From a virus, in IMG/VR virus record IMGVR_UViG_3300044632_001003, positions 141,010 through 205,009 of that record: 64,000 nt of DNA. The stretch is one strand, 5' to 3'. Shown in pieces: positions 19,016 through 58,767 of this stretch. The first letter of the stretch is position 1. Each line of letters opens with the position of its first letter. A program made the position numbers and the translations under genes. The notes under the pieces were generated by a model, which was given only the letters and a program-made list of their open reading frames with translations, was not told the DNA's origin and did no database searches.

Positions 19016-19124
19016 CTTTTATTTCCTTTTCTTCATTATAAGATGGTTCTGGTTTTCTGTAAAGACCTGGCCAAGTATCACGAATAATCTCTGCGAGTTT
19101 ATAGGGTGTTTCTGATGTTATCAT
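18999..19124 (-). CDS. small hypothetical protein (41 aa)
   Basis: Starts MITSETPYKLAEIIRDTWPG and ends in a charged tail (EEKEIKDEQVS). The ATG overlaps the aldolase stop as ATGA, which is the main evidence that it is a real gene. No function recognised. Confidence 0.5.
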   Translation of the reverse strand: MITSETPYKLAEIIRDTWPGLYRKPEPSYNEEKEIKDEQVS

Positions 19125-19902: not shown

Positions 19903-20023
19903 GTGAATATGCAGGTTGCAGGATTCCTCCATCTTGGTCATCATCGTCATCGTGGTCTTCAGTAAAAATAACGATAAGTGCGAATGCGAAGATGACCAAG
20001 TATAGAAGATACTGTGCGGTCAC
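19889..20023 (-). CDS. small membrane protein coupled to psbD (44 aa)
   Basis: A GTG start overlaps the psbD stop as GTGA. The peptide has a hydrophobic helix at residues ~4-20 ([17 protein letters not shown]), then a run of Asp ([10 protein letters not shown]) and a short tail. One predicted transmembrane segment with an acidic C-terminus. Tight coupling to psbD suggests an accessory role at the thylakoid membrane during infection; this is inference only. The transcript terminates at its stop codon. Confidence 0.6.
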
Positions 20024-21677: not shown

Positions 21678-22760
21678 TCAACCAATCGCAGGAGCAGTCA
21701 AGGCAACAGGAGTTGCTTCGGCAGCAGCGAGGTCCAGAGGAAAGTTATGGGCGTTTCTCTCATGCATCACTTCCATTCCGAGTCCAGCACGGTTCAGGAC
21801 ATCTGCCCAAGTGTTGAGCACACGACCCTGACTATCCAGGATACTCTGATTGAAATTCAGTCCGTTGAGATTAAAAGCCATCGTGGAAACACCAAGAGCG
21901 GTGAACCAGATGCCTACAACAGGCCAGGCAGCAAGGAAGAAGTGCAGCGAACGTGAGTTATTGAACGAAGCATATTGGAAAATAAGGCGTCCAAAGTAAC
22001 CGTGAGCAGCAACGATGTTATAGGTCTCTTCTTCTTGACCAAACTTGTAACCATAGTTCTGGGACTCGTTCTCAGTGGTTTCACGAACCAGCGAGGAAGT
22101 AACCAGAGAACCGTGCATTGCACTGAACAGAGAACCACCGAAGACACCAGCAACTCCAAGCATATGGAAGGGGTGCATCAGGATGTTGTGCTCTGCCTGG
22201 AACACAAGCATGTAGTTGAAAGTACCAGAGATACCCAGAGGCATCGCATCAGAGAACGAACCTTGACCGAAAGGATAGACCAGGAACACTGCACTCGCAG
22301 CAGCAACAGGTGCGCTATAAGCAACACAGATCCATGGACGCATACCAAGACGGTAGGAAAGTTCCCACTCACGACCCATATAAGCATAGATACCGATCAG
22401 GAAGTGGAACACAACCAGTTGGAAAGGACCACCGTTGTAAAGCCACTCATCTAGGGAAGCAGCTTCCCAGATGGGGTAAAAGTGCAGTCCAATAGCATTG
22501 GACGAAGGAATCACAGCACCAGAGATGATGTTGTTTCCGTACATGAGTGAACCAGCAACGGGTTCACGGATACCATCGATATCCACAGGGGGAGCACCGA
22601 TGAATGCGATGATGAAGCAAGTCGTAGCAGCAAGCAGACAGGGAATCATCAGAACGCCAAACCAACCCACATAGAGGCGGTTATCGGTTGAAGTAACCCA
22701 GTTGCAGAACTGTTCCCAAATATTCGATTGTGATTTTTGACGTGAAAGAGTAGCAGTCAT
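21678..22760 (-). CDS. psbA: photosystem II D1 protein
   Basis: 360 residues, full length. It begins [20 protein letters not shown] and contains canonical D1 segments, including [21 protein letters not shown] with a metal/quinone His, and the C-terminal [20 protein letters not shown] with the processing site after DLA. The protein turns over rapidly in light; the phage copy keeps PSII working through lysis. No group I intron interrupts it. An exact TATAAATA promoter lies ~160 nt upstream with a structured leader between, and a strong terminator follows. Confidence 0.99.
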
Positions 22761-27982: not shown

Positions 27983-30820
27983 TTAGAGTAGTGTAGTTCT
28001 TACAAATCTATAGGTTGTTAATCCTGTAACACCTGCCTCTGGAGTTGCTTGTAATTTACACACTCCAGCAGAGACTGTAGCTCCAACAGAAACAACAATC
28101 GATGGGTCATACATGATTGCATATTCTTGTGAATATGCGGTGGTTCCGTTTTGCATGACAAGAACTTTCTGAGATTGAATATAAGTTCCATATCCAACAT
28201 GGAGTGTATATTCTGCTGTCTTAAAGTCAGTTGTTGCGATTGTAAAGCTATCAATATCAGTTGCAACTCCAACAGTAGAATTGAAGGTTCCAAATCCTGT
28301 TGATACTCCGTATCTCTCAACTTGTAGTTTTGATACTGGATTTGTTGTAGCAATGCCAACATTGGAAAGTGTATGAATGCCAACGCCAGTTGCTACCCAG
28401 TAAGATTCTCCACCCCCACCACCAGCTCCTGCAGGTCCTTGAACACCCTGAATTCCTTGGGCGGCGGCAGAACCTGCTATACCCTGTGTTCCCTGGGATC
28501 CAGTAATACCTTGAATTCCTTGTGTTGCTGTTCCAGTAGTTCCCTGAACACCTTGAGTTCCTTGAGTTCCTGCTCCAGTAATACCTTGGATACCTTGAGT
28601 TCCCTGAGTTCCTTGAATACCTTGAATACCTTGAATACCTTGAGAACCTTGTGTCCCTGCACCAGCGATGCCCTGAATACCCTGAGTTCCTTGAGTTCCT
28701 GTTCCAGAAATACCCTGGATTCCCTGAGTTCCTTGAACACCCTGAATACCTTGAGTTCCTGCTCCAGTAATACCTTGGATTCCTTGAATACCTTGGATAC
28801 CTTGAGTTCCCTGTGAAGCTTGTGTTCCTTGGACACCCTGAACACCTTGGGTTCCCTGAATACCTTGAGAAGCAAAGGCACCATCATTTCCCTGAATACC
28901 CTGAGCACCAGGTCCTCCAGTTGCCCCACCAGTTCCCTGAGAACCTTGAATCCCTTGACTTCCAGTTCCAGTTGTACCCTGAGTTCCATTAGAACCCTGA
29001 GTACCTTGAATACCTTGAACCGTCGCATCAGAACCCTGAACACCTTGAGTCCCTTGAACACCTTGCCCACCAACAACACCTTGAATACCTTGATATCCTT
29101 GGGCAGCTGCTTCACCTGATATTCCCTGATTTCCCTGAGTTCCATTAGACCCAGCGACACCTTGAATACCTTGATATCCCTGGAAAGTTGCAGATCCATC
29201 ATTTCCCTGGACACCTTGACCACCTTGAAGACCCTGGTTACCCTGAACACCTTGAGAACCAGTTGCACCATTGGCACCTTGGATTCCCCCAGAACCTTGA
29301 GTTCCACCCTCACCCTGAACACCCTGAGTTCCTTGAGTTCCTGCCCCTATAGTGCCCTGAATACCCTGAACACCTTGACGACCTTGTGTTCCTTGAGTTC
29401 CACCGTATCCCTGAACACCCTGAATACCCTGGCGTCCTTGTGACCCCTGAGTACCTTGAGTTCCTCCAGAACCTTGAGTTCCTGCTGTACCTTGAGCTCC
29501 AGACCCAGTAACACCTTGAATACCTTGAGTTCCTTGAGTACCGCTATCCCCCTTATCACCAGTTCTAGCAAAAGTAATAATTACATCTTCATCGTTAGAA
29601 AATGAAGAAGCACTTGCGGTGCTTATACCACAAGGAATTTTAAAATATCCTGTTCCTTCTACACTTGACCCAGTAATAACAAATAAAGCAAAATCAGAAG
29701 CGTTTGATTTATTTGTTATTCTAAAATGACCCTTTATTGATGAAGTAGAATCATCAATCGTTCTTAGATAATCCTGAATATCAGTAGCATTATCATCCTG
29801 GTCATCAATATAAAGTTCGGTTGCTATACCGACAGAAGCATTGTTTAACTTTAATCTACCAGATCCAGGGTCTGTATCTGAAGTATTAGAGTCAAAAGTA
29901 AAGTCAAATGTTACGCCACCAAAATTACCAGTAGTTCCCTGAATACCCTGAACACCTTGAGTTCCTTGAATTCCTTGAACTGTTGATGCACTACCTTGGA
30001 TACCCTGAACACCTTGAGATCCATTTGTTCCACCTACACCTTGGATACCCTGAACACCTTGAGTTCCATTTGTTCCATTTGCGCCATCTACACCTTGGAT
30101 ACCTTGAATACCTTGAGTCCCTGGACCACCGCCACCTACTACTGTCTCAAATACAAATTTTCCTAAAGTATGATCATACTTTAAATACTTACCATCATAA
30201 GCAGAAGCATTTGTTGCAATACCAACAACGTCATCAAGATACTTTAGTTTAGTTTCACCACCGCCACCAACTGTAGCAATTTGCTCCTGAATACGATTGA
30301 TGAATAAATTATAGTGCTTATTCAGGTCTTCAATCGTTACAAAATTTTGATCTAATGGTGTCAGTGGATCTGTAGTAACTGTTTCTGGTGGTTGATTTAA
30401 CAAACCCTCTTGAAGGTCATTATAAATTCTTAAGACCTTATCTACTTTCTTTTCAATACTTGGAATATTAAAAAGAAAATTTTCAGATATCTCATCAAAA
30501 ATTTGCTTTCTCAATAAAGAAAGTTCTTCTTCTACAGAATTAATATGCCCCTTTACCTTCTTAATTGAATTATTATTTACCTTTGATTCTCTTACAACAG
30601 AAATTTCTTCCGTTAGAATATCATTTTTTGCAGGAACAGCATCCTCTCTCCAACTATATTTTACAACTTCATTCTCCTTATTTTTTTGCTCATACAAAAA
30701 ATTCTTGTCACTGTCATTAACGGCAACATCGGTCTTTTTTAATTCAGATTCCAACATCTTAAGTTTTTCATCCAAGTTGGAACCCTTGGAATGTCTTATA
30801 CTCTTCTTAAAAATACCCAT
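27983..30820 (-). CDS. collagen-like tail fibre with coiled-coil N-terminus
   Basis: 945 residues. Residues ~1-190 are highly charged with heptad character (LDEKLKMLESELKKTDVAV, HINSVEEELSLLRKQIFDE), so a coiled-coil stalk. Gly-X-Gln collagen-like tracts lie at roughly 233-293 and 420-797, split by a ~110-residue globular insert that resembles the insert of the giant fibre. The C-terminal ~145 residues include GVGIHTLSNVGIATTNPVSK and a beta-rich tip. Likely a second trimeric fibre. An AATAAATA element lies ~29 nt upstream. Confidence 0.85.
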   Translation of the reverse strand: MGIFKKSIRHSKGSNLDEKLKMLESELKKTDVAVNDSDKNFLYEQKNKENEVVKYSWREDAVPAKNDILTEEISVVRESKVNNNSIKKVKGHINSVEEELSLLRKQIFDEISENFLFNIPSIEKKVDKVLRIYNDLQEGLLNQPPETVTTDPLTPLDQNFVTIEDLNKHYNLFINRIQEQIATVGGGGETKLKYLDDVVGIATNASAYDGKYLKYDHTLGKFVFETVVGGGGPGTQGIQGIQGVDGANGTNGTQGVQGIQGVGGTNGSQGVQGIQGSASTVQGIQGTQGVQGIQGTTGNFGGVTFDFTFDSNTSDTDPGSGRLKLNNASVGIATELYIDDQDDNATDIQDYLRTIDDSTSSIKGHFRITNKSNASDFALFVITGSSVEGTGYFKIPCGISTASASSFSNDEDVIITFARTGDKGDSGTQGTQGIQGVTGSGAQGTAGTQGSGGTQGTQGSQGRQGIQGVQGYGGTQGTQGRQGVQGIQGTIGAGTQGTQGVQGEGGTQGSGGIQGANGATGSQGVQGNQGLQGGQGVQGNDGSATFQGYQGIQGVAGSNGTQGNQGISGEAAAQGYQGIQGVVGGQGVQGTQGVQGSDATVQGIQGTQGSNGTQGTTGTGSQGIQGSQGTGGATGGPGAQGIQGNDGAFASQGIQGTQGVQGVQGTQASQGTQGIQGIQGIQGITGAGTQGIQGVQGTQGIQGISGTGTQGTQGIQGIAGAGTQGSQGIQGIQGIQGTQGTQGIQGITGAGTQGTQGVQGTTGTATQGIQGITGSQGTQGIAGSAAAQGIQGVQGPAGAGGGGGESYWVATGVGIHTLSNVGIATTNPVSKLQVERYGVSTGFGTFNSTVGVATDIDSFTIATTDFKTAEYTLHVGYGTYIQSQKVLVMQNGTTAYSQEYAIMYDPSIVVSVGATVSAGVCKLQATPEAGVTGLTTYRFVRTTLL

Positions 30821-38396: not shown

Positions 38397-39253
38397 ACTT
38401 CACCTCTAAGGGCTCTCAATATACCTTCTTCTAAAGAAATTTTAGGAGTGTAAAAACTTAGCATTTTTGATGGATCACAAACCCGATATTGAACTCCAAC
38501 AGGAGCAGTTGGAATATGATTCGGAGTTGGACTATATCCTTTCAATGAAGTGACTAAAGAAAACAGTTCATTGAAAGAAGTAGCAATGCCCCAACCAAGA
38601 TTTACAGGACCTTGAATATCCTCTTTGATTGCAGTATCTACTGCTTCAATTATATCATGCATATGAATAAAATCCCTAACCTGATTTCCATCTCCCCATA
38701 TATCAAATGGGTCTGCAAGATTTCTAGCTCTATTAATATAAGATGGGAAAGGATAATCTAAATCTTGGTCGGTTCCATATCCACTAAAAGGTCTAAAGAC
38801 ATTAATCTTTATACCTTCTGCTTCTAAAAACTGCATCAAAAATTCACCCGTCAATTTAGACCAACCATAAGTCATATCAGGGTTATTGATATCTGATAAA
38901 TCAATATCAGTTTCCTTTAATTGATACTTCTGTGTCTGCAGTTTGGTTGGATAGGCAGCAGAAGATGAAAAGTAAATAATGCGTGTTGGTTTAGTTCGAA
39001 GTGCCCACTGACACATTTCGGAATCAATAGAAAGGTCAGTTGCTACTGATAAAGGATTATGTTCGATTGTCTGACGACCACCAACGATTGCTGCTAGATG
39101 GACTACTAAATCAAACTTATCCTCTGAAGTCTTGAAGTAATCTCTACAATCATTGCCATCTTTAATATCGATACCAACAATATCATGATCAACATACTTC
39201 CTCATGAAGTATTTTCCGACAAATCCTTTATGTCCTGTGATTAATATTTTCAT
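38393..39253 (-). CDS. NAD(P)-dependent sugar-nucleotide epimerase/dehydratase
   Basis: 286 residues. MKILITGHKGFVGKYFMRKY gives the GxxGxxG NAD-binding loop; LVVHLAAIVGG near residues 49-59, SSSAAYPT near 96-103 and YGWSKLTGE near 129-137 (Y-x3-K) give the SDR catalytic pattern. The best by-eye fit is the GDP-fucose synthetase/GalE-like extended SDR group, but the substrate is not certain. If it makes GDP-fucose it would feed the GT11 enzyme at 45046; no gmd partner is visible in the window. Confidence 0.8.
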   Translation of the reverse strand: MKILITGHKGFVGKYFMRKYVDHDIVGIDIKDGNDCRDYFKTSEDKFDLVVHLAAIVGGRQTIEHNPLSVATDLSIDSEMCQWALRTKPTRIIYFSSSAAYPTKLQTQKYQLKETDIDLSDINNPDMTYGWSKLTGEFLMQFLEAEGIKINVFRPFSGYGTDQDLDYPFPSYINRARNLADPFDIWGDGNQVRDFIHMHDIIEAVDTAIKEDIQGPVNLGWGIATSFNELFSLVTSLKGYSPTPNHIPTAPVGVQYRVCDPSKMLSFYTPKISLEEGILRALRGEV

Positions 39254-39945
39254 GCTCTGAGTTCAGAATGATTTTTCTTTAGGGCAATAATTTTAGGAGC
39301 AAAGGGATAATCTGGATTTCCCATTTGTTCTTCGGCAAAACAATACGAAGGTGTCAGACTCAAAGTGGGTGGATTATCAATCAGGTAACGATTCATCTGT
39401 GACTCATCATGCCACAAAGCAATCACACCATTCTCAAGGTCTTTAGTCACACGGTCTGCAAGAACCTCTGCCATCTCAAGAAATCTTTTAGTAGATCCAC
39501 CATTGAATCCACCAGCGTAATAGTCCTCTCCTTCCTCACCCACAGGGACGTATGCCAGCGACTGTGGGTTTCTATCGTAAGACCTCTGCTCCTTAGGATA
39601 GAAGGACTGGTAGGGGTGCTGAGTGGCAACCAGGTCGCTTAGAACCTCATCACCAACCTTATCTACCAGACCCATATCCACATCAAAGTAGAAGCAATAA
39701 TCAAACTGAGAGATAAACTCTTTTTCTTTTACAAAGTAGTTGTATCTCTTCAGAGTTGGCATTGGCCAAGGTTCGTGGTCAATCTGACAAACTCGCACAT
39801 TGTCAGATGCTTCAACTTCATGGTCTGTGAAAAGCAAACACTCAATCTCATGTCCATTGAGAAAGTTCTCTTCAATATTATCAAGAAGTCTTTCAACGAA
39901 CTGAATATACTTGTTTGTTGCAATGGTCAGGATACAGATTTTCAT
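39250..39945 (-). CDS. GT6-family glycosyltransferase (ABO/alpha-1,3-galactosyltransferase type)
   Basis: 231 residues from the ATG at 39945, chosen because GAGGTG stands 5-6 nt upstream. The GT6 pattern is clear: CLLFTDHEV near 36-44, IDHEPWPMPTLKRYNYF near 55-71, YCFYFDVDMGLVDKVG near 83-98 with a D-V-D metal motif (88-90), EDYYAGGFNGGSTKRFLEM near 140-158 and LWHDESQMNRYLIDNPP near 177-193. GT6 enzymes add Gal or GalNAc in alpha-1,3 linkage, classically to fucosylated galactose (ABO antigens). It has the bacterial/phage catalytic-domain form without a membrane anchor. Confidence 0.88.
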   Translation of the reverse strand: MKICILTIATNKYIQFVERLLDNIEENFLNGHEIECLLFTDHEVEASDNVRVCQIDHEPWPMPTLKRYNYFVKEKEFISQFDYCFYFDVDMGLVDKVGDEVLSDLVATQHPYQSFYPKEQRSYDRNPQSLAYVPVGEEGEDYYAGGFNGGSTKRFLEMAEVLADRVTKDLENGVIALWHDESQMNRYLIDNPPTLSLTPSYCFAEEQMGNPDYPFAPKIIALKKNHSELRA

Positions 39946-39946
39946 C

Positions 39947-40675
39947 TTACACCTCAATATAATTTACATTATCAAAAACAAAAAATCCCTTGTCTTTATG
40001 TTCTTGAACGGTTCCATGTAAAAAGCAATTGAGATTTACTTCGGAACCATACTTATATTTAATCGCTGCTGCCATGGAGTTTCCTCCAGAGTAGAGACAG
40101 AAATAATCCTTTGCACTATGAATGATATCAGCATACTGGAAAATACTCTCAATCTCAAGAGGATTATTTTCAAATTCAAATCCACCTGAAAGTGAAAGTG
40201 AATTTACATTTTTAAAAGTTACCAATAATGCATCATCAGGAATAGAAGATTCTACCAATGAAAATAATTTATCAGCATCATAAAATTCACCGACATCATT
40301 CTTCAATAAAGTATGTGCAGACAAATCAACAATCGTCTTATCTCTATATTCCTCTAAAAGATTTGGTTGATAATAGATTTCAGGATATCTACCGTCACCT
40401 GCAAATCCATGCCGAATTTCTGCAGCAGAAACAATGTTGTCTGTTGTTCCATTTTTAAGATCGGGAGCACATGAACCAATGTTTGCATGATTGGTTGCAA
40501 CACCTTTTACATAAGGATTGTCTCTCCAACAAAATTCATAAATCTCAGGGTTTCTATATGTATTGTCAGCACTGATATAAAAATTATATCCCTTTTCTGC
40601 ATACAATTTAGGTAGGGTAGTGAATTGAAGATTGTCACCTAATCCACCCCAAGGTTGTCCAAAAAATACGTTCAT
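39947..40675 (-). CDS. putative glycosyltransferase (GT-B/heptosyltransferase-like)
   Basis: 242 residues. It starts MNVFFGQPWGGLGDNLQFTT, a Gly-rich G-x-G-D loop followed by a helix as in GT9 heptosyltransferases and fucosyltransferase-like folds. Near residue 190 DYFCLYSGGNSMAAAIKYKY resembles the nucleotide-binding S-G-x-x-H/S-x2-A part of such enzymes. Assignment is weak. It lies between FkbM-like and GT6 genes, one base before the GT6 start. Confidence 0.5.
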   Translation of the reverse strand: MNVFFGQPWGGLGDNLQFTTLPKLYAEKGYNFYISADNTYRNPEIYEFCWRDNPYVKGVATNHANIGSCAPDLKNGTTDNIVSAAEIRHGFAGDGRYPEIYYQPNLLEEYRDKTIVDLSAHTLLKNDVGEFYDADKLFSLVESSIPDDALLVTFKNVNSLSLSGGFEFENNPLEIESIFQYADIIHSAKDYFCLYSGGNSMAAAIKYKYGSEVNLNCFLHGTVQEHKDKGFFVFDNVNYIEV

Positions 40676-41364
40676 TTTCCTTTATTTACAAAGATAAAAT
40701 CTGTTCCGAAATGAACTCCAGTATTTCCATAAGCCCTATAGAAATTGTGAGTTTTCAAAAAATTATTTACATCATCAAAAAGACACTGCCCATCATACAT
40801 TGGATTAATCTCCAACTCTGTATGAATCACCTGAACAGTTGAAAGAAGTTTTTCGCCCATTGATTCTAATGCAATTAACTCAGCACCCTGAAGGTCCATC
40901 CACATCAAATCAATATTCTCAATTCCATTTTCTTCACAAAAAGAATCTAGTCTCACACAATCAACTTCCAATTCTTTTTGGACGTATTTTTCAATATGGT
41001 CATATGTGCCATTTGCTTTATAAAGACTAGATGCACCTCTATTTCCATCAAACCAAGGAGTAACAGTTTTCTCAGGGTCAATAGGATAAAAAGTGCATAT
41101 TCCATTGTAACTATTCACAGCTTTATTAATGACTGTAATGTTATCAATGTCTTTGGTATTCTCTAAACAAACTTGATAAGAATCTGGGTTTGCTTCAAAT
41201 GCAAATATCCTTGCATTCTTATATCGTTTGGAGAATTCAATAGACTCCAAACAATGCAAAGAACCAACATCAAAAATTACAGAAACCTCATTTGGATCTC
41301 TGAATTTTTGGTTGGCAAAAGTATAAAATGTATCTAAAGATGAGACTTGGTACTGGGTTGTCAT
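40672..41364 (-). CDS. FkbM-family methyltransferase
   Basis: 230 residues. VIFDVGSLHCLESIEFSKRY near residues 29-48 is motif I; ARIFAFEANPDSYQVCLEN near 51-69 is the F-E-P/A-N-P FkbM signature; ENIDLMWMDLQGAELIALE near 148-166 is the D-x-x-G-x-E motif. FkbM proteins O-methylate sugars or polyketides. Overlaps its neighbours by 4 nt. Likely caps or modifies a sugar of the island's glycan. Confidence 0.88.
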   Translation of the reverse strand: MTTQYQVSSLDTFYTFANQKFRDPNEVSVIFDVGSLHCLESIEFSKRYKNARIFAFEANPDSYQVCLENTKDIDNITVINKAVNSYNGICTFYPIDPEKTVTPWFDGNRGASSLYKANGTYDHIEKYVQKELEVDCVRLDSFCEENGIENIDLMWMDLQGAELIALESMGEKLLSTVQVIHTELEINPMYDGQCLFDDVNNFLKTHNFYRAYGNTGVHFGTDFIFVNKGK

Positions 41365-41690
41365 TTAAAAAAGTCTTTGTCCGAAATTGCTTTATCATCA
41401 ATATAATAATCACCGAAGGGTTTCCCTAACATAAGATTAGTAAATTTACAACCCCAGGAAACTAACTGATCATATGTTTCATTATAACATGCATCATATG
41501 CTATTCTAACAGAGTTTTTACCTCTGCCCATACCTCTTGCAGTGAAGTATATAATAGTATGCCCATCATCATACAATGAATTAACTTTAGCAATCCTATC
41601 ATAGAAAGGTTCTGCTAAAGAATAATCACCATATGTTTGAGTGCATATGGTGTTATCAATATCTACAATATATGTTTTCAGTTCAGCCAT
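41361..41690 (-). CDS. HAD-superfamily phosphatase (short)
   Basis: 109 residues. Motif I is YIVDIDNTICT (D-x-D-N-T) near residues 7-17 and motif II is TIIYFTARGMG near 45-55. Lys and Asp of motifs III/IV appear in LMLGKPFGDYYIDDKAI. Short capless HAD proteins of this kind are common in polysaccharide loci. It could remove the phosphate of the sugar bisphosphate made by the PfkB-type kinase at 43428, as GmhB does in heptose synthesis; that role is inferred. Confidence 0.75.
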   Translation of the reverse strand: MAELKTYIVDIDNTICTQTYGDYSLAEPFYDRIAKVNSLYDDGHTIIYFTARGMGRGKNSVRIAYDACYNETYDQLVSWGCKFTNLMLGKPFGDYYIDDKAISDKDFFK

Positions 41691-42349
41691 GCAGAGAAGT
41701 CCTTATCAAAGCGTTCGATTGCTTCAGTGCTCTTAGGATGCTCAACCATCTCAAGAATAACGGGAAGACCAGTCGTTACGATATCGGCACCTTCTTTCCA
41801 AGCATCAGAAACATCAGTTTGAGTACGGATACTGCCAGCGATAATCTCACAATCTAGGGCGTTCTCATAAATGTAATTCTTGGTTCGGTCAAGAACCTTT
41901 GCAACATCTCCACCATGCTGCTTCAGGCGGCAGTAAAAGAGAGAAACGTAATGAGCACCAGCAGAAGCACACAGTTGCAGTTGCTGCTCACTGTAGCAAG
42001 CAGTGGCATTGATTTGCACACCTGCCTTGGAAACAGTTTTGATTGCACGAAGACCATCAAATCCAACTGGAATTTTCACATGAAACTTATTGCAAAGAGG
42101 ATAAAACCTTTCATACATTTCACTTGCTTGACGAACCATGCCCTCATAATCTAGGGCAAACACTTCAGCACTCAGAGAAAGATCTTCACTACCACAATAC
42201 TCAGCAAGTTTTTGAATTAGTGCATCAAAACTTCCCTTTGGTTCTTTAGCAATAATGGAAGGGTTGGTTGTTACACCTTGAATGGCACCCATTTCATTTG
42301 CTTTAATAATTTCATCAAGATTAGCTGTATCAGCAAAAAGATAGTTCAT
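41678..42349 (-). CDS. talC: transaldolase, TalC/fructose-6-phosphate aldolase type
   Basis: 223 residues, the short form. Schiff-base Lys92 lies in NKFHVKIPV; other family motifs are FADTANLDEI, GVTTNPSIIAKE and YVSLFYCRL. Transfers dihydroxyacetone units between sugar phosphates in the pentose phosphate pathway. Known cyanophage auxiliary gene thought to push carbon toward NADPH and ribose. Here it sits inside the sugar-activation part of the glycan island, overlapping HAD and cupin genes, so it may also set the supply of pentose/heptose phosphates. Confidence 0.96.
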   Translation of the reverse strand: MNYLFADTANLDEIIKANEMGAIQGVTTNPSIIAKEPKGSFDALIQKLAEYCGSEDLSLSAEVFALDYEGMVRQASEMYERFYPLCNKFHVKIPVGFDGLRAIKTVSKAGVQINATACYSEQQLQLCASAGAHYVSLFYCRLKQHGGDVAKVLDRTKNYIYENALDCEIIAGSIRTQTDVSDAWKEGADIVTTGLPVILEMVEHPKSTEAIERFDKDFSAWLN

Positions 42350-42771
42350 TCGTCCTCTTTAAATACGTAGGTTTTTCCATCTTCAACGATGTTTGAATCT
42401 TCATCATCGTCTTTATTTGACCATTCTACCACAATAGTATCCTCCAATGCAATACGCATATGCATCAAACCAGGAGGAATATGAAATACATCTCCTGCTT
42501 CTAAAATGATAGATTTATTTTTGGCACGACCAATTCTCATACCAACTTTAAGTTTTCCAGATTGAATATAATAATATTCATCTTTAGTGACGTGATACTC
42601 CATACTACTTTGAGTACCCGCTTTCATAAAGACTTCTTTTAAGGTAAAGTCATCAGTAGCAAATACGGTAGTGATGTATCCCCAATACTTCTCTCTTTTT
42701 TCTTCACACTTAAGTACAAGAGGAAGTTCTTGCCTCCCGTAACTATTGTCCGTAGTATTTGTTGATTCCAT
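42346..42771 (-). CDS. cupin protein, sugar-phosphate isomerase-like
   Basis: 141 residues from the ATG at 42771 (an alternative start at 42783 adds four residues). A single cupin barrel with YHVTKDEYYYIQSGKLKVGM near residues 60-79 and a second metal-ligand segment GDVFHIPPGLMHMRIALED near 93-111. This matches C-terminal mannose-6-phosphate isomerase/cupin_2 domains. Overlaps the aldolase gene upstream. Could be a sugar-phosphate isomerase or epimerase in the activation pathway. Confidence 0.75.
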   Translation of the reverse strand: MESTNTTDNSYGRQELPLVLKCEEKREKYWGYITTVFATDDFTLKEVFMKAGTQSSMEYHVTKDEYYYIQSGKLKVGMRIGRAKNKSIILEAGDVFHIPPGLMHMRIALEDTIVVEWSNKDDDEDSNIVEDGKTYVFKEDE

Positions 42772-43435
42772 TCTTTCGTTCAAAATGTTTTTTATACAAG
42801 TCTCTACTCAATCTACATGGTTGAATATGTGGATTGATTGAGGTGGTGTAGTAAGCCATTTCAGCAATTTCCTCTAACACTATAGCACATTCTAGTGTTC
42901 TTTTAGATGAATCTGAGAATACCATAACACCATGCCCAGGCAAAAGGATGGCAGGTATGTTAAGTGGATTTATTTTCTTAGATTGATAAAAATCAACTAC
43001 GCACTGTCCCAGATTCTTTTCATATTCATCAAGTTCAAACTTTTCTAGTTGTCTAGCAACTGGAATATCAGATAGAAAGTAATCGGCGTGAGTTGTCCCT
43101 AAAATAGGAATTGGTTTAAGTGCCTGTGCCCATGAAGTTGCAAACTTTGAATGACTATGAATAACTGATTTAATCTCTGGAAATGCCTTATAAATTTCCA
43201 AATGAATTGCTGTATCGACAGAGGGTTTCATACCAGAAATTAATTTTCCAGTATAAAGTTCGACAATACAAAGTTGGCTAAACGTAAGTTTATCAAACTC
43301 AATCCCAGAAGGTTTAATAACAATATGCTTACCATCTTCAGTAAGCACACTGGCATTTCCCCAAGTTAGTTTGACTAAACTGTTTTCCTTTAAACTTTTG
43401 TTCAGAGATAAACAATCTTCAATTGCCTTATTCAT
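42743..43435 (-). CDS. class II aldolase, L-ribulose-5-phosphate 4-epimerase-like
   Basis: 230 residues from the ATG at 43435, which overlaps the kinase stop (ATGAATAA); the open frame extends further up but into the kinase. WGNASVLTEDG and IKPSGIEFDKL near the start, zinc ligands in SVIHSHSKFATSWAQ near 97-111, and LLPGHGVMVF. The C-terminus HFERKNGINKYYGQ is very close to the AraD end (K-H-G-x-x-A-Y-Y-G-Q). So it probably interconverts L-ribulose-5-P and D-xylulose-5-P or acts on a related sugar. Confidence 0.85.
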   Translation of the reverse strand: MNKAIEDCLSLNKSLKENSLVKLTWGNASVLTEDGKHIVIKPSGIEFDKLTFSQLCIVELYTGKLISGMKPSVDTAIHLEIYKAFPEIKSVIHSHSKFATSWAQALKPIPILGTTHADYFLSDIPVARQLEKFELDEYEKNLGQCVVDFYQSKKINPLNIPAILLPGHGVMVFSDSSKRTLECAIVLEEIAEMAYYTTSINPHIQPCRLSRDLYKKHFERKNGINKYYGQ

Positions 43436-44204
43436 GTAATGGTTTAGATACAAATTCAGCGGCGACTTGGTTAGCAAAAACTGGGTCACCAGTTGCTAGA
43501 AGAGCTGCATAAAAACAATCTCCTGCACCAATAGTATTTACCACATTTTCCACAGGCGTTGCTGGATAATTAACACCGTTCATCATGCAACCATCTGCAC
43601 CTTTTGTTACACAGATATTTGTTACCCGATCTACGTGTTTTGCTTCCTCTTGATTACAGACTAAGTAATCAACCGCCCAATACCTATCATAGTTTGATGT
43701 CTTACTCGATACCTGAGAAGAGGCATATGTAATTTTTCCAGAATCAGTTGCATGTTTGATGAATGATTCTGTAATAAATCCACAACGGTAATCAGCAAAA
43801 GCAATGATATCAAACTCATCAATATCAAAATTTTCTAAGAACGATTTTGAAAACTCATTATTGACATCATTAACTTGTAGATGATTGTATCGACTATCTC
43901 CATGATTAACCCAGTATCTTGTTTTAGTATTATTACGACCCTGGAAAAAACTTTTTACTGGGAGATCATAATGCAACTCAAAAGTATCACAGTCTTTATC
44001 AGACATTGATGTTGCAAATGTTACGTCTCTACCAAATCCACGAAGAAACTTGGCAACATTAGCAGCGCCACCAAAATCATAACTGTGCTCTTCAATTACC
44101 GTTTTGATTGTTGGAGACTCTAGTGATAGTCCGATTGCCCTAAGTTCTAGAGTTTCATCAATGATGGTATCACCAACAATTAGATACTTTAAATTTTCTC
44201 GCAT
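43428..44204 (-). CDS. PfkB-family sugar kinase, RfaE/HldE domain I-like
   Basis: 258 residues. LIVGDTIIDETLELRAIGLS, then SLESPTIKTVIEEHSYDFGG-AANVAKFL (the P-G-G-A-A-N-V-A region) and the ATP/anion-hole NTIGAGDCFYAALLATG near residue 225. The order S-x-E-x-P ... G-G-A-A-N-V-A is typical of D-beta-D-heptose-7-phosphate 1-kinase (HldE N-domain). It overlaps the adenylyltransferase fusion gene upstream by 16 nt; together they reproduce both halves of HldE in separate polypeptides. Confidence 0.85.
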   Translation of the reverse strand: MRENLKYLIVGDTIIDETLELRAIGLSLESPTIKTVIEEHSYDFGGAANVAKFLRGFGRDVTFATSMSDKDCDTFELHYDLPVKSFFQGRNNTKTRYWVNHGDSRYNHLQVNDVNNEFSKSFLENFDIDEFDIIAFADYRCGFITESFIKHATDSGKITYASSQVSSKTSNYDRYWAVDYLVCNQEEAKHVDRVTNICVTKGADGCMMNGVNYPATPVENVVNTIGAGDCFYAALLATGDPVFANQVAAEFVSKPLHE

Positions 44205-45049
44205 GTTTCAAGTTCTCTAATTTTTTGCATGGTATTGGTTGTGGAATAGTCTCCAACCAAAGGATAAACTTTAACTTGTATAGACTCTGGAATACAGTCT
44301 CTGCTTCTTACTTCATCAGCAGTCCATTCAGAACCCTTAACAATTACATCTGGAGAGAGTGTTTGATAGAATTCTTGAAGTTCTTCAGTTGAATCAAAAA
44401 TGATGACTTCATCAACATAACGATTTGTCTCAAGAACCCTTCTACGATCTTCTTCATTATTAACAGGTCGATTGTCACCTTTGAGTTGTTTTACTCTGCG
44501 GTCAGAATCAATAGCAACAATCAGTTTTGTTCCCTGCAATCTAGCAAACTTCAAAAGTTCAATATGGCCCTTATGAAGGATATCAAAAACTCCATTTGTT
44601 AAAACAATGCCAGTATGTGAATCAATCTTTTCAACACGCTTGACATGACGACCTTCTCCCCATGCTTCATCTAACCACATTTTGCTCATCTCTCTCATTT
44701 CAATCTGAGAAGACAACCACGTACCCAAACAAAGAACATTGGAATCATTATGCTCTCTAGACTTAACCGCAGTGAGTTCATTATGAGCTAGAACAGCACG
44801 GACACCAGCAAAACGATTTGCAACGATACTCATACCAACACCAGTTCCACAGATAAGGATACCTCGGTCCGCCTCACGATTACTCACAATTGTAGATAAC
44901 TGAGCTGCATAATCAACATAATCGACACTCACATCAGAAGTATAAGGTCCAATATCAATAACCCGATATCCTTCTCCCTTAAGATACATCTTTAGTTGTT
45001 CTTTGTTCTCGACCCCATTATGGTCAGAAGAAATAATGATCGTTTTCAT
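44189..45049 (-). CDS. fusion of RpiB-type isomerase and RfaE/HldE-type nucleotidyltransferase
   Basis: 286 residues in two domains. Residues ~1-145 are RpiB/LacAB-like: SDHNGVENKEQLKMYL, GILICGTGVGMSIVANRFAG (active Cys and G-T-G) and SREHNDSNVLCLG. Residues ~150-286 are cytidylyl/adenylyltransferase: GVFDILHKGHIELLKFA (G-x-F-D-x-x-H-x-G-H) and DVIVKGSEWT. The second half matches HldE2, which makes ADP-heptose. Overlaps the fucosyltransferase upstream (4 nt) and the kinase downstream (16 nt). The isomerase may act on ribose-5-P or, by analogy to GmhA, on a heptulose phosphate. Confidence 0.88.
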   Translation of the reverse strand: MKTIIISSDHNGVENKEQLKMYLKGEGYRVIDIGPYTSDVSVDYVDYAAQLSTIVSNREADRGILICGTGVGMSIVANRFAGVRAVLAHNELTAVKSREHNDSNVLCLGTWLSSQIEMREMSKMWLDEAWGEGRHVKRVEKIDSHTGIVLTNGVFDILHKGHIELLKFARLQGTKLIVAIDSDRRVKQLKGDNRPVNNEEDRRRVLETNRYVDEVIIFDSTEELQEFYQTLSPDVIVKGSEWTADEVRSRDCIPESIQVKVYPLVGDYSTTNTMQKIRELETCEKI

Positions 45050-45846
45050 AGAAATTCAAAGTTACCAAATGGATAATCAACTGTTGATTTATTATAGCAT
45101 TCTCCACCAAACCAATTTTTGGGGGCAATTACTTTTTTACTTTTTGCTAACCATGCACCCCACCAAGAGAATGATGAATTTGCAATGATGTGATAATCGC
45201 ATAATGACATTAAGCAAAGATCAGCATCGGTTGTGTTTTCTTCTGATATCAAAAACCTATCATCTTTAAATAAATCCTGCTCTTTACACCAAGATTCATC
45301 ATCAGAAAAAACAATAACAGGAAGTTCTGGTAGTTTAGAAAGTGCTTCCTGATAATAACTAATTGGTTGCACAGGATGATTTGGATTAGAGGTATAATCT
45401 CCTCTACGAATATGTAAAGAGATTACTTCACTATCAAAATTTTCTTTAAGAAATTCTTTACAATTAGAATACAACTCTTCATTAAATCTAAAGTCTTCTC
45501 GTATCTCATCTTCAATATGCTTGAAGTATTTTTCGGTTTGAAAGTATCCCATTAAATCTACATTATCTGGGCAATTGATGAATAATTCCTCATCAAATTC
45601 ATGCTTTCTTTCCCAAAAAGTATTGGCATCCTGTAGAGCACAATCATTATTTTTTTCTATATTTTCAAAAACATCGTATAAAATAACATCAGAATTTTTG
45701 ACATTATCATCATGCTGCCCAAAAACATATCTAGGTGGAATGATAAATCCATATCCCCTATTTCTAGCAATTCCTTTTAAAGAAGCATATTGAAACATTT
45801 GATTGGCAAGTCTTCCAAGATTGCCAATATGATTGAGTGATATCAT
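45046..45846 (-). CDS. GT11-family alpha-1,2-fucosyltransferase-like protein
   Basis: 266 residues. GNLGRLANQMFQYASLKGIA at residues ~8-27 is the N-terminal GT11 motif; VISLHIRRGDYTSNP near 141-155 is the donor-binding H-x-R-R-x-D-Y motif (His145-Asp150); LSLCDYHIIANSSFSWWGAW near 215-234 completes the family. Known reaction: transfer of fucose from GDP-fucose to the 2-position of galactose. Near the head of the glycan island, overlapping both neighbours by 4 nt. Confidence 0.92.
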   Translation of the reverse strand: MISLNHIGNLGRLANQMFQYASLKGIARNRGYGFIIPPRYVFGQHDDNVKNSDVILYDVFENIEKNNDCALQDANTFWERKHEFDEELFINCPDNVDLMGYFQTEKYFKHIEDEIREDFRFNEELYSNCKEFLKENFDSEVISLHIRRGDYTSNPNHPVQPISYYQEALSKLPELPVIVFSDDESWCKEQDLFKDDRFLISEENTTDADLCLMSLCDYHIIANSSFSWWGAWLAKSKKVIAPKNWFGGECYNKSTVDYPFGNFEFL

Positions 45847-48089: not shown

Positions 48090-48165
48090 TCGGAGTATTC
48101 GGATTTGAACCGAAATTATTCCGCTTCCCAAAAGCGGTGCCATGACCAAGTTAGGCGATACTCCG
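48090..48165 (-). tRNA. tRNA-Pro(TGG)
   Basis: Cloverleaf with acceptor CGGAGTA/TACTCCG, anticodon stem CCGCT/AGCGG and loop TTTGGGA (anticodon TGG), and T-arm GGTTCAAATCC. Its 5' 15 nt are also the last codons and stop of the HNH gene at 48151-48507. Confidence 0.9.
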
Positions 48166-48507
48166 TAGTTCCAACTCACCAGAATGAACTGCTGCGTGGC
48201 AACAAGCACATAATAGCACACATTCCTTTATTTCGTCAATAATACGTTCGTGACTCCATCCACGAATCCCATGAAATTTAGCGTCTTTTTGAGATGGATC
48301 TAAATGATGAACTTGAAGTGCTGATGAATATTTATCATAACCACAAGAAACACACTTACCTCCCATTTCTTCAAGAATAAAATTTCTTTTTTTCTGTCCC
48401 AACTCTAATGTATATTTGTTATGACAAGCACCACAAACACTTTTTTTATGCCCATAAAACTTAGATGGATCAGTTTCTCCACAATGCCCACACTTATGCG
48501 TTCTCAT
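48151..48507 (-). CDS. HNH endonuclease overlapping tRNA-Pro
   Basis: 118 residues. Zinc-binding pairs CGHCGETD and CGACHNKY in the N-terminal part, then KCVSCGYDKYSSALQVHHLD near residues 51-70 (HNH His pair) and LLCACCHAAVHSGE near 98-111. A typical free-standing HNH homing-type endonuclease. The stop TAA lies within the tRNA-Pro gene, so the two overlap by 15 nt. A CATAAATA element is ~28 nt upstream of the start. Confidence 0.85.
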   Translation of the reverse strand: MRTHKCGHCGETDPSKFYGHKKSVCGACHNKYTLELGQKKRNFILEEMGGKCVSCGYDKYSSALQVHHLDPSQKDAKFHGIRGWSHERIIDEIKECVLLCACCHAAVHSGELELRSIA

Positions 48508-48904: not shown

Positions 48905-48986
48905 AATATCCCCCTTTTGTTCCGAAGTAAAGAGTTGTTAATACGAAAGGAATTGAAACAAATAAAAGTGCTTTTGCTAATAACAT
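48864..48986 (-). CDS. small membrane protein coupled to PTOX (40 aa)
   Basis: Begins MLLAKALLFVSIPFVLTTLY, one membrane helix, then a polar tail (FGTKGGYYDTEKYKGNG). The ATG shares a base with the PTOX stop. Possibly a partner of the oxidase at the thylakoid; inferred from coupling only. Confidence 0.6.
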   Translation of the reverse strand: MLLAKALLFVSIPFVLTTLYFGTKGGYYDTEKYKGNGTAH

Positions 48987-49486
48987 CAGATCATCTCCAT
49001 TGCTCGTTCTAGTTCAATATAATGGTTCATTTCATCCACTGCGATCTCTGCAATCTTTGCATCATCCTGATGATCCCAGAAGTAATCTAGGTATGTTTCT
49101 GTTGCATGAAACTCAATACCTGAGTTCAGATGATAAGCGAAAACAGGAGCAAGAAAATAATAACCCACCATAATCCAATAATAGATGAGAACCAAATGAT
49201 AAGCGAAAAAGCGATCAACCCAGCGATCTGCTCCGCCACGCGACTCCATTTCTCTGAGGTGTTCGGTTTCATTAATTGTCTGTGCGAAGTGTTCTTTCAT
49301 TAAGTAGTAATGTTCTTCTGTTCGGAGACCTAGTGATTCTCTGAGATGAAGAACACTGAGAAAAGCGAAGTAAGGTGCTCTGGCGATTGTTTCCAGCACC
49401 CAGAATCTTTGGATTGGTAGATCACGGTAGAGGAAGTCAATGATGGCTACCGTAATTGATAGAACTGCATCATTGAACTTTCTCAT
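48986..49486 (-). CDS. plastoquinol terminal oxidase (PTOX, alternative-oxidase family)
   Basis: 166 residues from the ATG at 49486, which has AGGAG upstream; the open frame begins earlier but inside another gene. Di-iron ligands are visible: VLETIARAPYFAF (Glu), NETEHLREME (E-x-x-H), a Glu in HATETYLDYF and DEMNHYIELE (E-x-x-H). PTOX oxidises plastoquinol and reduces O2 to water, relieving over-reduction and providing ATP without PSI. Coupled on both sides to small genes, downstream of gnd. Confidence 0.93.
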   Translation of the reverse strand: MRKFNDAVLSITVAIIDFLYRDLPIQRFWVLETIARAPYFAFLSVLHLRESLGLRTEEHYYLMKEHFAQTINETEHLREMESRGGADRWVDRFFAYHLVLIYYWIMVGYYFLAPVFAYHLNSGIEFHATETYLDYFWDHQDDAKIAEIAVDEMNHYIELERAMEMI

Positions 49487-49650
49487 AGGAATACTCCTGG
49501 TTGATAATTTACTAACTTTTGAATCTCGGTAAGAAGTGCTCCATACTCCCTGAACTTTCTGTCTCCAGCAATATGGTGTCTTTGTCTGACCCACACTGCG
49601 TCTGCAATCAGACGAAGTTCATATTCTGAAAAATCTTTAAATCGTTCCAT
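49483..49650 (-). CDS. small hypothetical protein between gnd and PTOX (55 aa)
   Basis: Starts MERFKDFSEYELRLIADAVW; soluble, charged, helical. AAGGAG ribosome site 6-7 nt before the ATG, 11 nt after the gnd stop; its stop overlaps the PTOX start as ATGA. Not recognised. Confidence 0.65.
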   Translation of the reverse strand: MERFKDFSEYELRLIADAVWVRQRHHIAGDRKFREYGALLTEIQKLVNYQPGVFL

Positions 49651-49661
49651 TGATAATCTCC

Positions 49662-50696
49662 TTATCTAACGTGATGACCACCAAACATAAATCTCATGCC
49701 ATTCAGGATTTTTGCTCCGAAAGATCCGAGATTGCGTGAATTAAATCGCTCAAATAGGGCAGTAGTAATAACAGGAGCGGATATCCCCAAATCCACAGCG
49801 GCAGAAACAGTCCAACGACCCTCACCGCTGTCGGATACCCCACCAGAGAACTGTTTAAGCTCACTGTTGCCGCGTAACACATCAGCAGTAAGATCAAGTA
49901 ACCAACTACCAACCACGCTACCACGACGCCATAACTCAGCCACCTCAGCAACATCAATATCATAGCAATAGGATTCGGGGTCTGCCATTGGGGCGACTTC
50001 TGCATCTCCTTCTCTAACATACTGAGCACCTGCGTTTGCGTTTTTGATGATGTTGAATCCTTCAGCGTATGCTTGCATGATGCCATATTCAATACCATTA
50101 TGCACCATCTTTACAAAGTGACCAGCACCAGGACCACCACAATGCAACCAACCGTGCTCTGCAGAAGTTACGTCTGAGTCAAATTGAGTCCTGGGGGCAG
50201 CACTGATTCCTGGGGCAAGGGCATCAAAAATGCGCGAACAAGAGGCGACCGCAATATTTCCCCCACCAACCATAAGACAGTATCCACGATCCAAACCATA
50301 AACACCGCCGCTAGTGCCACAATCAATATATTGGATACCCATCTTTGCCAAACGTTCTGCTCTTTTCCGACTGTCTTTAAAATTGCTATTGCCATGATCA
50401 ATAATAATATCTCCCTCACTACAAAATCGTAATAACTCATTGATTGTCTCCTCTACTGTTTCTGCTGGCACAACCATTTGGAAGATTCCTGGTTGTATTC
50501 CCCCGTTTTTTGTTTGTTTAACTACTTGAACAAGATTTTGAATAGTAGTTGTAACTCCATTAACAAATCCCTTTTCATAAGCTTCCTGAGCCTTTTCATA
50601 ATTTCTCCTGTAACCCCAGACTTCAATTCCTGCCTTCATCATGCGGCGAGACATTCCTTCTCCCATTCGCCCCAGTCCAATTAATCCTACTCTCAT
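49662..50696 (-). CDS. gnd: 6-phosphogluconate dehydrogenase, decarboxylating
   Basis: 344 residues, the short (GndA/YqeC-like) form. NADP-binding GLIGLGRMGEGMSRRM at residues ~4-19, the substrate loop YIDCGTSGGVYGLDRGYCLM near 123-142, and the catalytic Lys in GAGHFVKMVHNGIEYGIMQA near 185-204. Produces NADPH and ribulose-5-phosphate; with talC and the RpiB domain it would direct host carbon through the pentose phosphate pathway. GGGGAGAG upstream of the ATG. Member of an operon with PTOX. Confidence 0.95.
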   Translation of the reverse strand: MRVGLIGLGRMGEGMSRRMMKAGIEVWGYRRNYEKAQEAYEKGFVNGVTTTIQNLVQVVKQTKNGGIQPGIFQMVVPAETVEETINELLRFCSEGDIIIDHGNSNFKDSRKRAERLAKMGIQYIDCGTSGGVYGLDRGYCLMVGGGNIAVASCSRIFDALAPGISAAPRTQFDSDVTSAEHGWLHCGGPGAGHFVKMVHNGIEYGIMQAYAEGFNIIKNANAGAQYVREGDAEVAPMADPESYCYDIDVAEVAELWRRGSVVGSWLLDLTADVLRGNSELKQFSGGVSDSGEGRWTVSAAVDLGISAPVITTALFERFNSRNLGSFGAKILNGMRFMFGGHHVR

Positions 50697-58317: not shown

Positions 58318-58767
58318 TCAAGCCCTTTTTTTATTTCCCCAAGTATCTGTCTGAGAGTGGCAATTTGGACATAAAAATCTTAAATTTTCTACTCGGTTGT
58401 CGTTATTTACACCATTAATATGGTCTATTTGTAGTGATATTGGATTTCCCATCCATTCAGATATACCACACTTTAAACATTCATACTTTAATATATCATC
58501 TTTCAATATTCTCTTTTTTAAATCTTTTCTATCATAAGTAGAAAATTCGCAAAAAATTTCAGAGTGAGTTTTCTTTTTGGTGCTTTTACCACCCTTCCTA
58601 AAAATAGGAAGTTTAATTCCTCTATTATCAAGGTCTTTTTTTACAATATCATAAGTAGTTCCGCTTTTATTAGTATATCCAAGTTTTTTACAAAACTGCC
58701 AAAAAGAAGAACTTTCTAAAAGAAAAGATTTTATTTCCTCATCAGAATATAAATTTTTAATAGACAT
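58318..58767 (-). CDS. HNH endonuclease in tRNA cluster
   Basis: 149 residues. The N-terminal half is helical and basic (FWQFCKKLGYTNKSGTTYDI, GGKSTKKKTH). The C-terminal HNH core has KYECLKCGISEWMGNPISLQ, IDHINGVNNDNRVENLRFLC and PNCHSQTD (D-H ... N ... C-x-x-C-H). The L-x-x-D-H-I-N-G-x-x-x-D-N-R form is common in homing endonucleases. An exact TATAAATA lies 20 nt upstream. Confidence 0.88.
   Translation of the reverse strand: MSIKNLYSDEEIKSFLLESSSFWQFCKKLGYTNKSGTTYDIVKKDLDNRGIKLPIFRKGGKSTKKKTHSEIFCEFSTYDRKDLKKRILKDDILKYECLKCGISEWMGNPISLQIDHINGVNNDNRVENLRFLCPNCHSQTDTWGNKKRA

What the first reader, a model, noticed from the sequence alone, without database searches (positions are those of the whole stretch)
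41361..45049. Sugar-activation module with RpiB-HldE2 fusion, RfaE-type kinase, AraD, transaldolase and HAD phosphatase
Seen: six overlapping genes; one polypeptide joins an RpiB isomerase domain to a nucleotidyltransferase, the next is the matching kinase half of HldE, then AraD-like, cupin, TalC and HAD. Known: ADP-heptose synthesis uses isomerase (GmhA), 1-kinase (HldE1), phosphatase (GmhB), adenylyltransferase (HldE2). Inference: this is an analogous route in which an RpiB-type isomerase replaces GmhA and TalC/AraD tune the sugar-phosphate pool, giving an NDP-activated pentose or heptose for the island's transferases.
Basis: partly seen in the sequence, partly recalled or inferred. Interest (0 to 1): 0.85.

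Follow-up and report, generated by a model that had tools for sequence, protein, structure and literature searches.

The report
Phage cassette activating a heptose-like sugar
A marine cyanobacterial virus carries a six-gene cassette, shared intact by many unrelated viruses and a few bacteria, that appears to build and activate an unusual long-chain sugar, probably a seven- or eight-carbon one, for a neighbouring sugar-attaching enzyme; its hosts are not known to make such sugars.

Summary
Window 41361-45049 (minus strand) holds six overlapping genes: an RpiB-nucleotidyltransferase fusion, PfkB/RfaE-like kinase, AraD epimerase, cupin, transaldolase and small HAD phosphatase. It is not a local oddity: the same cassette, mostly in the same order, recurs in about 40 IMG/VR contigs and, sometimes reordered, in Prochlorococcus and several bacterial MAGs, under purifying selection. 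Named cyanophages carry a simpler core (nucleotidyltransferase-kinase-HAD-cupin). In contig L213 that core replaces the cassette at the same island position. Both modules sit with X39947, an unannotated gene whose predicted fold matches the ADP-heptosyltransferase TibC and GT9 enzymes. X39947 is in 6 of 6 module-bearing islands and 0 of 34 others. The RpiB half and the transaldolase carry fixed, family-specific changes, so they look like specialised pathway enzymes. Best reading: a mobile HldE-like pathway in which the transaldolase builds the ketose phosphate, AraD inverts C4, RpiB and/or the cupin isomerise it, and kinase, phosphatase and nucleotidyltransferase yield an ADP-activated C7 (perhaps C8) sugar. 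Substrates and product are inferred; only gene content, conservation and linkage are shown.

The parts
44189..45049 (-). RpiB-type sugar-phosphate isomerase fused to an HldE2/RfaE-II-type nucleotidyltransferase (286 aa)
   Evidence: Pfam LacAB_rpiB + CTP_transf_like; passes TIGR01120 rpiB cut-off, NTase best match rfaE_dom_II; catalytic D8,H9,C66,T68,H99,R133,H134,R137 invariant; N10 and W110 (for phosphate Arg113) in 41/41 fusions
43428..44204 (-). PfkB/RfaE-I-like sugar C1 kinase (258 aa)
   Evidence: PfkB E 1e-12; rfaE_dom_I best NCBIfam match, far below cut-off; GAGD motif; bacterial orthologues closer to RfaE-I (142-185 bits)
42743..43435 (-). L-ribulose-5-phosphate 4-epimerase-type class II aldolase/epimerase (start ATG 43435)
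   Evidence: closest solved structure E. coli L-ribulose-5-P 4-epimerase 1jdi, E 9e-49, full length; Zn and acid/base residues H95, H97, H171, D120, Y229 kept
42346..42768 (-). small metal cupin, PMI/lyxose-isomerase-like, candidate sugar-phosphate isomerase (start ATG 42768)
   Evidence: Cupin_1; weak GMP_PMI; weak PDB matches to mannose-6-P isomerase and D-lyxose isomerase; model is a generic cupin
41678..42349 (-). transaldolase-type (TAL/FSA family) enzyme of a distinct subfamily
   Evidence: TAL_FSA E 2e-41; closest solved structures are transaldolases (3r8r E 8e-60) ahead of F6P aldolases; Schiff-base K92; G172 in 39/39 vs A in 8/8
41361..41690 (-). small HAD phosphatase (GmhB-like role proposed)
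   Evidence: HAD motifs D10xD12, T50, K90, D94/D98; EcbF-BcbF capsule phosphatase weak hit; 53-57% to the cyanophage protein annotated 'phosphoheptose isomerase'; fused to the cupin in L085/L086
39947..40675 (-). X39947: GT9/TibC-like (heptosyltransferase-fold) glycosyltransferase, proposed user of the product
   Evidence: AlphaFold model pLDDT 81, pTM 0.83; Foldseek top hits TibC 4rap/4rb4 (E 1e-6), then 3tov, WaaC, WaaF; present in 6/6 module-bearing and 0/34 module-less islands
45046..45846 (-). GT11 fucosyltransferase-like gene (flank; remains in islands without the cassette)
   Evidence: Glyco_transf_11 E 2e-28
40672..41364 (-). FkbM methyltransferase (flank; not strictly linked to the cassette)
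   Evidence: Methyltransf_21 E 4e-20; present without the module in L206, absent in L213

Best explanation
A mobile nucleotide-sugar cassette. Proposed steps: (1) the transaldolase moves a dihydroxyacetone unit from fructose-6-P or sedoheptulose-7-P onto an aldose phosphate, giving a (3S,4R) C7 or C8 ketose phosphate; (2) the AraD-type enzyme inverts C4 where present; (3) the RpiB domain and/or the cupin isomerises ketose phosphate to aldose phosphate, taking GmhA's place; (4) the PfkB kinase phosphorylates C1; (5) the HAD phosphatase removes the distal phosphate; (6) the nucleotidyltransferase domain makes an NDP- (probably ADP-) aldose; (7) the adjacent GT9/TibC-like transferase X39947 attaches it to a glycan or protein. 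Shown: gene content, catalytic residues, conservation, co-inheritance, subfamily-specific changes, linkage to GT9-like genes. Inferred: every substrate, the chain length, the nucleotide and the acceptor.
For: The six genes recur as a unit in about 40 viral contigs with differing flanks and, reordered or with extra fusions (cupin-HAD in L085/L086), in bacteria. Distances correlate between genes, r 0.66-0.95. Kinase, HAD and NTase match the HldE1-GmhB-HldE2 logic. Transaldolase and AraD both act at the C3-C4 bond of ketose phosphates (established chemistry), and AraD keeps all epimerase residues. The transaldolase has fixed G172 where canonical enzymes have Ala; the matching A165G change in F6P aldolase enlarges the acceptor pocket (PMC3962088). 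The RpiB half has W110 in 41/41 for the phosphate-binding Arg113 (PMC4882579). X39947 folds like ADP-heptosyltransferases and tracks the module 6/6 vs 0/34. PF01075 (GT9) is in 12/23 cassette records vs 0/30 GT11-island controls. L213 swaps the core for the cassette beside the same X39947. In L027/L029 a second NTase-kinase-cupin set follows the cassette and shares its one HAD, so the modules appear to run the same chemistry.
Against: No activity, product or glycan is known. Kinase and NTase fall below the heptose equivalog cut-offs. The RpiB half still scores as ribose-5-P isomerase (TIGR01120) and AraD is closest to a pentose-phosphate epimerase, which also fits a pentose. With both RpiB and a cupin present, one isomerase is unassigned. 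AraD is absent from L041, L042 and L082. GT9-fold enzymes do not all use heptose. The GT9 control set is not matched for phage lineage or contig length, and loci are related, so the p-values overstate independence.
Confidence: 0.5

Rival explanations
1. Octose version: the RpiB domain supplies ribose-5-P, the transaldolase condenses it with a C3 unit to octulose-8-P, the cupin isomerises it, and kinase, HAD and NTase give an NDP-octose, a convergent analogue of the lincosamide route LmbR-LmbN-LmbP-LmbK-LmbO.
For: Every step of the lincosamide route has a counterpart here. LmbR makes octulose from F6P or S7P plus R5P (PMC5854111); roles of LmbN/P/K/O in PMC4351081. The RpiB half passes the rpiB cut-off. 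The transaldolase acceptor pocket looks enlarged (PMC3962088).
Against: The RpiB half lacks the phosphate Arg113 and has other fixed changes, so it may not make R5P; R5P is a host metabolite anyway. GT9 neighbours point to heptose rather than octose. LmbR's sequence could not be compared here.
Confidence: 0.2
2. Pentose version: AraD converts D-xylulose-5-P to L-ribulose-5-P, the RpiB domain makes an aldopentose-5-P, and kinase, HAD and NTase give an NDP-pentose, as proposed for arabinosylation precursors in phage RB69.
For: AraD is closest to L-ribulose-5-P 4-epimerase with all catalytic residues; the RpiB family acts on pentose phosphates; RB69 has an NTase-sugar isomerase fusion proposed to make UDP-arabinose (PMC6024577).
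Against: The transaldolase, kept in nearly every cassette long enough to show it, has no role. AraD is missing in L041, L042 and L082. GT9/TibC-like neighbours are not known as pentosyltransferases.
Confidence: 0.13
3. Hexose version: F6P is epimerised by AraD to tagatose-6-P, isomerised by the RpiB/LacAB-type domain to galactose-6-P, then phosphorylated, dephosphorylated and activated to an NDP-hexose.
For: Galactose-6-P isomerase LacAB is in the same family as RpiB; AraD chemistry inverts C4.
Against: LacA/LacB models score far below rpiB; an easier host route to NDP-galactose exists; the transaldolase would be unnecessary.
Confidence: 0.08
4. Central-carbon genes: RpiB, transaldolase and AraD boost pentose-phosphate flux during infection, like the known talC/gnd/zwf genes, and are only by chance near the kinase and NTase.
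For: gnd lies nearby and talC is a common cyanophage metabolic gene; this record has no second transaldolase.
Against: The transaldolase is a different subfamily. The genes are fused to, co-inherited with and move with sugar-activation genes, also in bacteria that mostly have a separate RpiB-like sequence.
Confidence: 0.05

Closest known systems
ADP-heptose pathway (GmhA, HldE1, GmhB, HldE2, HldD)
   Same: Order of chemistry: isomerise, C1 kinase, remove distal phosphate, nucleotidyl transfer; HldE1/HldE2-type folds; GT9-like transferase next door.
   Different: No GmhA or other SIS protein; RpiB domain fused to the NTase; dedicated transaldolase, AraD and cupin; small capsule-type HAD instead of GmhB; kinase and NTase below equivalog cut-offs.
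Cyanophage core T4-GC 304-307 (NTase, kinase, HAD, cupin), e.g. P-SSM2, S-CAM1, S-SM2
   Same: Homologous NTase, kinase, HAD (53-57%) and cupin (36-43%); interchangeable with the cassette beside X39947 in L213.
   Different: The core has no RpiB, AraD or transaldolase; in L027/L029 a core-type set sits beside the cassette, so the products probably differ.
Lincosamide octose pathway (LmbR, LmbN, LmbP, LmbK, LmbO)
   Same: Transaldolase-built long-chain sugar, isomerase, kinase, phosphatase, nucleotidyltransferase.
   Different: The isomerase, kinase and NTase appear to be of other families (my knowledge, not compared here); LmbO is a guanylyltransferase; no AraD or RpiB step there.
RB69 ORF53_52c (NTase + SIS isomerase fusion)
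   Same: Phage protein joining a nucleotidyltransferase to a sugar-phosphate isomerase.
   Different: Different isomerase fold (SIS/GutQ) and domain order; linked to DNA arabinosylation, not a glycan island.
Cyanophage TalC
   Same: Same superfamily (TAL/FSA).
   Different: Named cyanophage copies shown are 34.6% identical; distinct fixed residues; in a sugar-activation cassette rather than with zwf/gnd/CP12.

Membership tests
ADP-heptose (HldE) pathway | GmhA-type SIS isomerase | tested here: not met
   no PF13580 hit in the 205-kb record at E<=1; none among the cassette genes
ADP-heptose (HldE) pathway | HldE1 kinase equivalog | tested here: not met
   rfaE_dom_I 52 bits vs cut-off 345; bacterial orthologues 142-185: same superfamily only
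ADP-heptose (HldE) pathway | HldE2 nucleotidyltransferase equivalog | tested here: not met
   rfaE_dom_II is the best NTase match, 127.8 vs cut-off 181.5
ADP-heptose (HldE) pathway | D,D-heptose-1,7-bisphosphate phosphatase (GmhB) | tested here: inconclusive
   HAD with intact motifs, but of the EcbF-BcbF/capsule type, not GmhB
ADP-heptose (HldE) pathway | product ADP-D-glycero-beta-D-manno-heptose | not testable with these tools
   needs enzymes and mass spectrometry/NMR
RpiB ribose-5-phosphate isomerase | family model score and catalytic Cys/His | tested here: met
   TIGR01120 146.4 > 138.65; C66, H99, H134 invariant
RpiB ribose-5-phosphate isomerase | phosphate-stabilising Arg113/137/141 | tested here: not met
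   Arg113 position is Trp in 41/41 fusions, Arg in 62/69 stand-alone RpiBs; the other two kept (PMC4882579)
Transaldolase (TalC type) | Schiff-base Lys and transaldolase rather than F6P-aldolase residues | tested here: met
   K92 invariant, Glu62/Phe138 pattern, transaldolases rank first
Cyanophage TalC | orthology with phage talC | tested here: not met
   named cyanophage copies shown are 34.6% identical; fixed differences from canonical TAL
L-ribulose-5-P 4-epimerase (AraD) | Zn ligands, Asp120, Tyr229 | tested here: met
   all kept; subfamily score 236.6, just under the 257 cut-off
GT9/TibC heptosyltransferase (X39947) | fold | tested here: met
   Foldseek TibC E 1e-6, TM about 0.6
GT9/TibC heptosyltransferase (X39947) | sequence family PF01075 | tested here: not met
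   no Pfam hit
Lincosamide octose pathway | orthologues of LmbR/N/P/K/O | not tested

The most novel reading that the evidence does not exclude
Viruses (and a few bacteria) carry an undescribed route to an NDP-activated long-chain sugar that is not ADP-L-glycero-D-manno-heptose, either an octose or a C4-epimeric heptose. A dedicated transaldolase and an AraD-type epimerase build it, and an RpiB-nucleotidyltransferase fusion activates it. The virus thereby installs a sugar its cyanobacterial host does not make.
Probability: 0.3. Interest if true: 0.82.

Novelty: new variant of a known kind. Interest (0 to 1): 0.63.

Why it matters
Cyanophage glycan islands are full of transferases whose donor sugars are unknown. 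This cassette predicts a specific class of donor, names the enzyme that probably uses it, and shows it is exchanged as a unit between viruses and hosts. Marine Synechococcus LPS (WH8102, CC9311) lacks heptose (PMC4515613), and none of 81 sampled genomes in the Prochlorococcus order passed the GmhA or HldE2 cut-offs. The virus would therefore bring in a new sugar rather than boost a host pathway, with consequences for surface masking, superinfection exclusion or virion glycosylation. It also shows that three 'central carbon' enzyme families can be recruited for sugar activation.

Tried and rejected
Nucleotide search of the block against named phages found only GT11 among the hits listed; protein searches were needed. 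The 'phosphoheptose isomerase' of named cyanophages was checked as a possible GmhA and rejected: it is the small HAD. The transaldolase as ordinary cyanophage TalC was rejected. The RpiB half as a spare housekeeping R5P isomerase was disfavoured. The cupin model did not discriminate between isomerase and other cupins. The fusion is rare in bacteria: the seed genome alone among 380 of one phylum, and among 399 of the Prochlorococcus order. Literature searches for this fusion or cassette found nothing, but the library lacks most subscription journals. LmbR sequences could not be fetched, so C7 versus C8 stays open. Two tool calls failed on wrong handles and one on disallowed rows.
Full report
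OBSERVATION. The window lies in a 205-kb virus record (G000:C1:141010-205009). By my reading of the ORFs it is a T4-like cyanophage: psbD 20020-21081, psbA 21678-22760, PTOX 48986-49594, gnd 49662-50696. They overlap one another by 4-26 nt and overlap the flanking GT11 and FkbM genes by 4 nt, as expected of one transcription unit. The fusion is a single frame with an RpiB domain (3-141) and a nucleotidyltransferase domain (149-244).

CONSERVATION. A viral contig scan returned full-length fusions at 52-100% identity in L002-L045. A scan of bacterial and archaeal genomes returned seven loci with both domains: Prochlorococcus AG-347-M18 (76%) and MAGs labelled archaeon, Acidobacteria, Longimicrobiales, Doudnabacteria, Parcubacteria and Taylorbacteria (53-56%; MAG labels may be contaminated). 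Of the 51 loci, 34 carry FUS-PFKB-ARAD-CUPIN-TAL-HAD in that order. Many others are cut by contig ends; three lack AraD (L041, L042, L082) and a few are reordered. The 34 include copies identical to the window virus. Flanking genes differ between groups while the cassette stays. Pairwise dN/dS is 0.05-0.5, lowest for the fusion, AraD and cupin. Pairwise distances correlate across the six genes (r 0.66-0.95). The Prochlorococcus copy branches with the window's group inside viral sequences, consistent with exchange between phage and host; direction is not resolved. The Prochlorococcus contig also carries an autokinase, a sugar transferase and ABC-transporter-like genes (my reading). In two CPR genomes the cupin and HAD are fused (L085, L086). 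The bacteria are rare carriers (1 of 380 and 1 of 399). Of seven bacterial genomes examined, four also have a separate RpiB-like sequence.

WHAT EACH PART IS. RpiB half: it scores above the rpiB equivalog cut-off, with all catalytic residues invariant. Against 69 stand-alone RpiBs, the 41 distinct fusions have fixed changes: Asn10 (41/41 vs 1/69), Val/Thr44 for Pro47, and Trp110 for Arg113 (41/41; Arg in 62/69). Arg113 is described as phosphate-stabilising (PMC4882579), so the substrate has probably shifted. NTase half: nearest rfaE_dom_II, below cut-off. Kinase: nearest rfaE_dom_I, far below cut-off in the phage and closer in bacteria. AraD: nearest L-ribulose-5-P 4-epimerase with the active residues kept; Ser75 is changed, mostly to Val. 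Transaldolase: nearest transaldolases, with fixed family-specific residues, among them Gly172 in 39/39 versus Ala in 8/8 and Leu137 (mostly) versus Pro. The Ala-to-Gly change at the matching position of F6P aldolase makes room for substituted acceptors (PMC3962088). HAD: intact catalytic motifs, capsule-phosphatase type. Cupin: a metal cupin with weak resemblance to mannose-6-P and lyxose isomerases.

RELATED MODULES. Named cyanophages carry NTase, kinase, HAD and cupin homologues without RpiB, AraD or transaldolase. Their annotations 'phosphoheptose isomerase' and 'cysteine dioxygenase' turn out to be the HAD and the cupin. A third type has a normal two-domain HldE, an epimerase and a cupin, no GmhA, between phage structural genes (L056, L070). 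The cupin is the partner common to all three. In L027 and L029 the six-gene cassette is followed at once or after one gene by a second NTase, kinase and cupin that share the single HAD; in L031 and L039 only the second cupin follows. Two sets of the same chemistry side by side suggest two different sugars.

THE LIKELY USER. X39947, two genes downstream, has no Pfam, NCBIfam or PHROG match. A model from seven homologues (pLDDT 81, pTM 0.83) matches TibC, an ADP-heptosyltransferase, first, then GT9 3tov, WaaC and WaaF. Among GT11-anchored islands that reach the next conserved gene, all 6 distinct islands with a module have X39947 and all 34 without one lack it. In L213 the four-gene core sits where the window has the cassette, beside the same X39947. 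Independently, GT9 (PF01075) is detected in 12 of 23 other cassette records (6 above cut-off) and 5 of 6 HldE-type records, but in 0 of 30 GT11-island controls; eleven of the twelve lie within about 2.5 kb of the cassette by my reading of coordinates. GT9 genes also lie on the L082 and L085 contigs. Caveats: related sequences are not independent and the controls are not lineage-matched.

MECHANISM. Transaldolase and AraD both work at the C3-C4 bond of ketose phosphates: the first sets 3S,4R, the second inverts C4. An isomerase then makes the aldose phosphate. Kinase, HAD and NTase follow the HldE1-GmhB-HldE2 logic. This accounts for every gene, leaving open which of RpiB and cupin is the isomerase and what the other does. 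The transaldolase's constancy argues against a pentose or hexose; the GT9 link argues for a heptose; the transaldolase pocket and the lincosamide precedent (PMC5854111, PMC4351081) keep an octose open. No SIS isomerase is in the record. Hosts of this order rarely have close HldE2 or GmhA relatives, and marine Synechococcus LPS lacks heptose (PMC4515613), so the sugar would be new to the host. All substrates and the product are inferred.

VERDICT. Real, conserved, mobile and not described in the papers searched; a new variant of the known ADP-heptose-type activation route, with an undescribed isomerase-nucleotidyltransferase fusion and a recruited transaldolase and epimerase. The main weakness is that product identity rests on genomic association.

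Noticed in passing
L162 6719-7400, L163 11357-12023, L164 6083-6743: In named cyanophages the gene annotated 'phosphoheptose isomerase' (T4-GC 306) is the small HAD phosphatase, and 'cysteine dioxygenase'/'nucleotidyltransferase' (T4-GC 307) is the sugar cupin; PHROG 1238 and 7851 carry the same names.
   Followed up: yes
L027 5989-11164; L029 5983-12182: Six-gene cassette closely followed by a second NTase-kinase-cupin set, one HAD shared by both; L031 and L039 have only the extra cupin.
   Followed up: partly
L213 7735-10257: Four-gene core occupies the cassette's island position beside the same GT9-like gene: a natural module swap.
   Followed up: yes
L056 5164-8200; L070 5236-7581: Phages with a normal bifunctional HldE, a nucleotide-sugar epimerase and a cupin, but no GmhA, inserted among structural genes.
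   Followed up: partly
window 19121-19786: A second class II aldolase, 55% to S-SM2_206, next to psbD; not part of the cassette.
   Followed up: no
window 7517-14638 and 27983-30820: Very long proteins rich in GxQG collagen-like repeats, probably fibres.
   Followed up: no
window 17592-17963, 21144-21581, 48151-48507, 58318-58767: Four small HNH-endonuclease-like ORFs scattered through the window, one beside a tRNA-Pro.
   Followed up: no
window 39250-39942: Glycosyltransferase family 6 (ABO-type, E 9e-39), conserved in many related islands.
   Followed up: no
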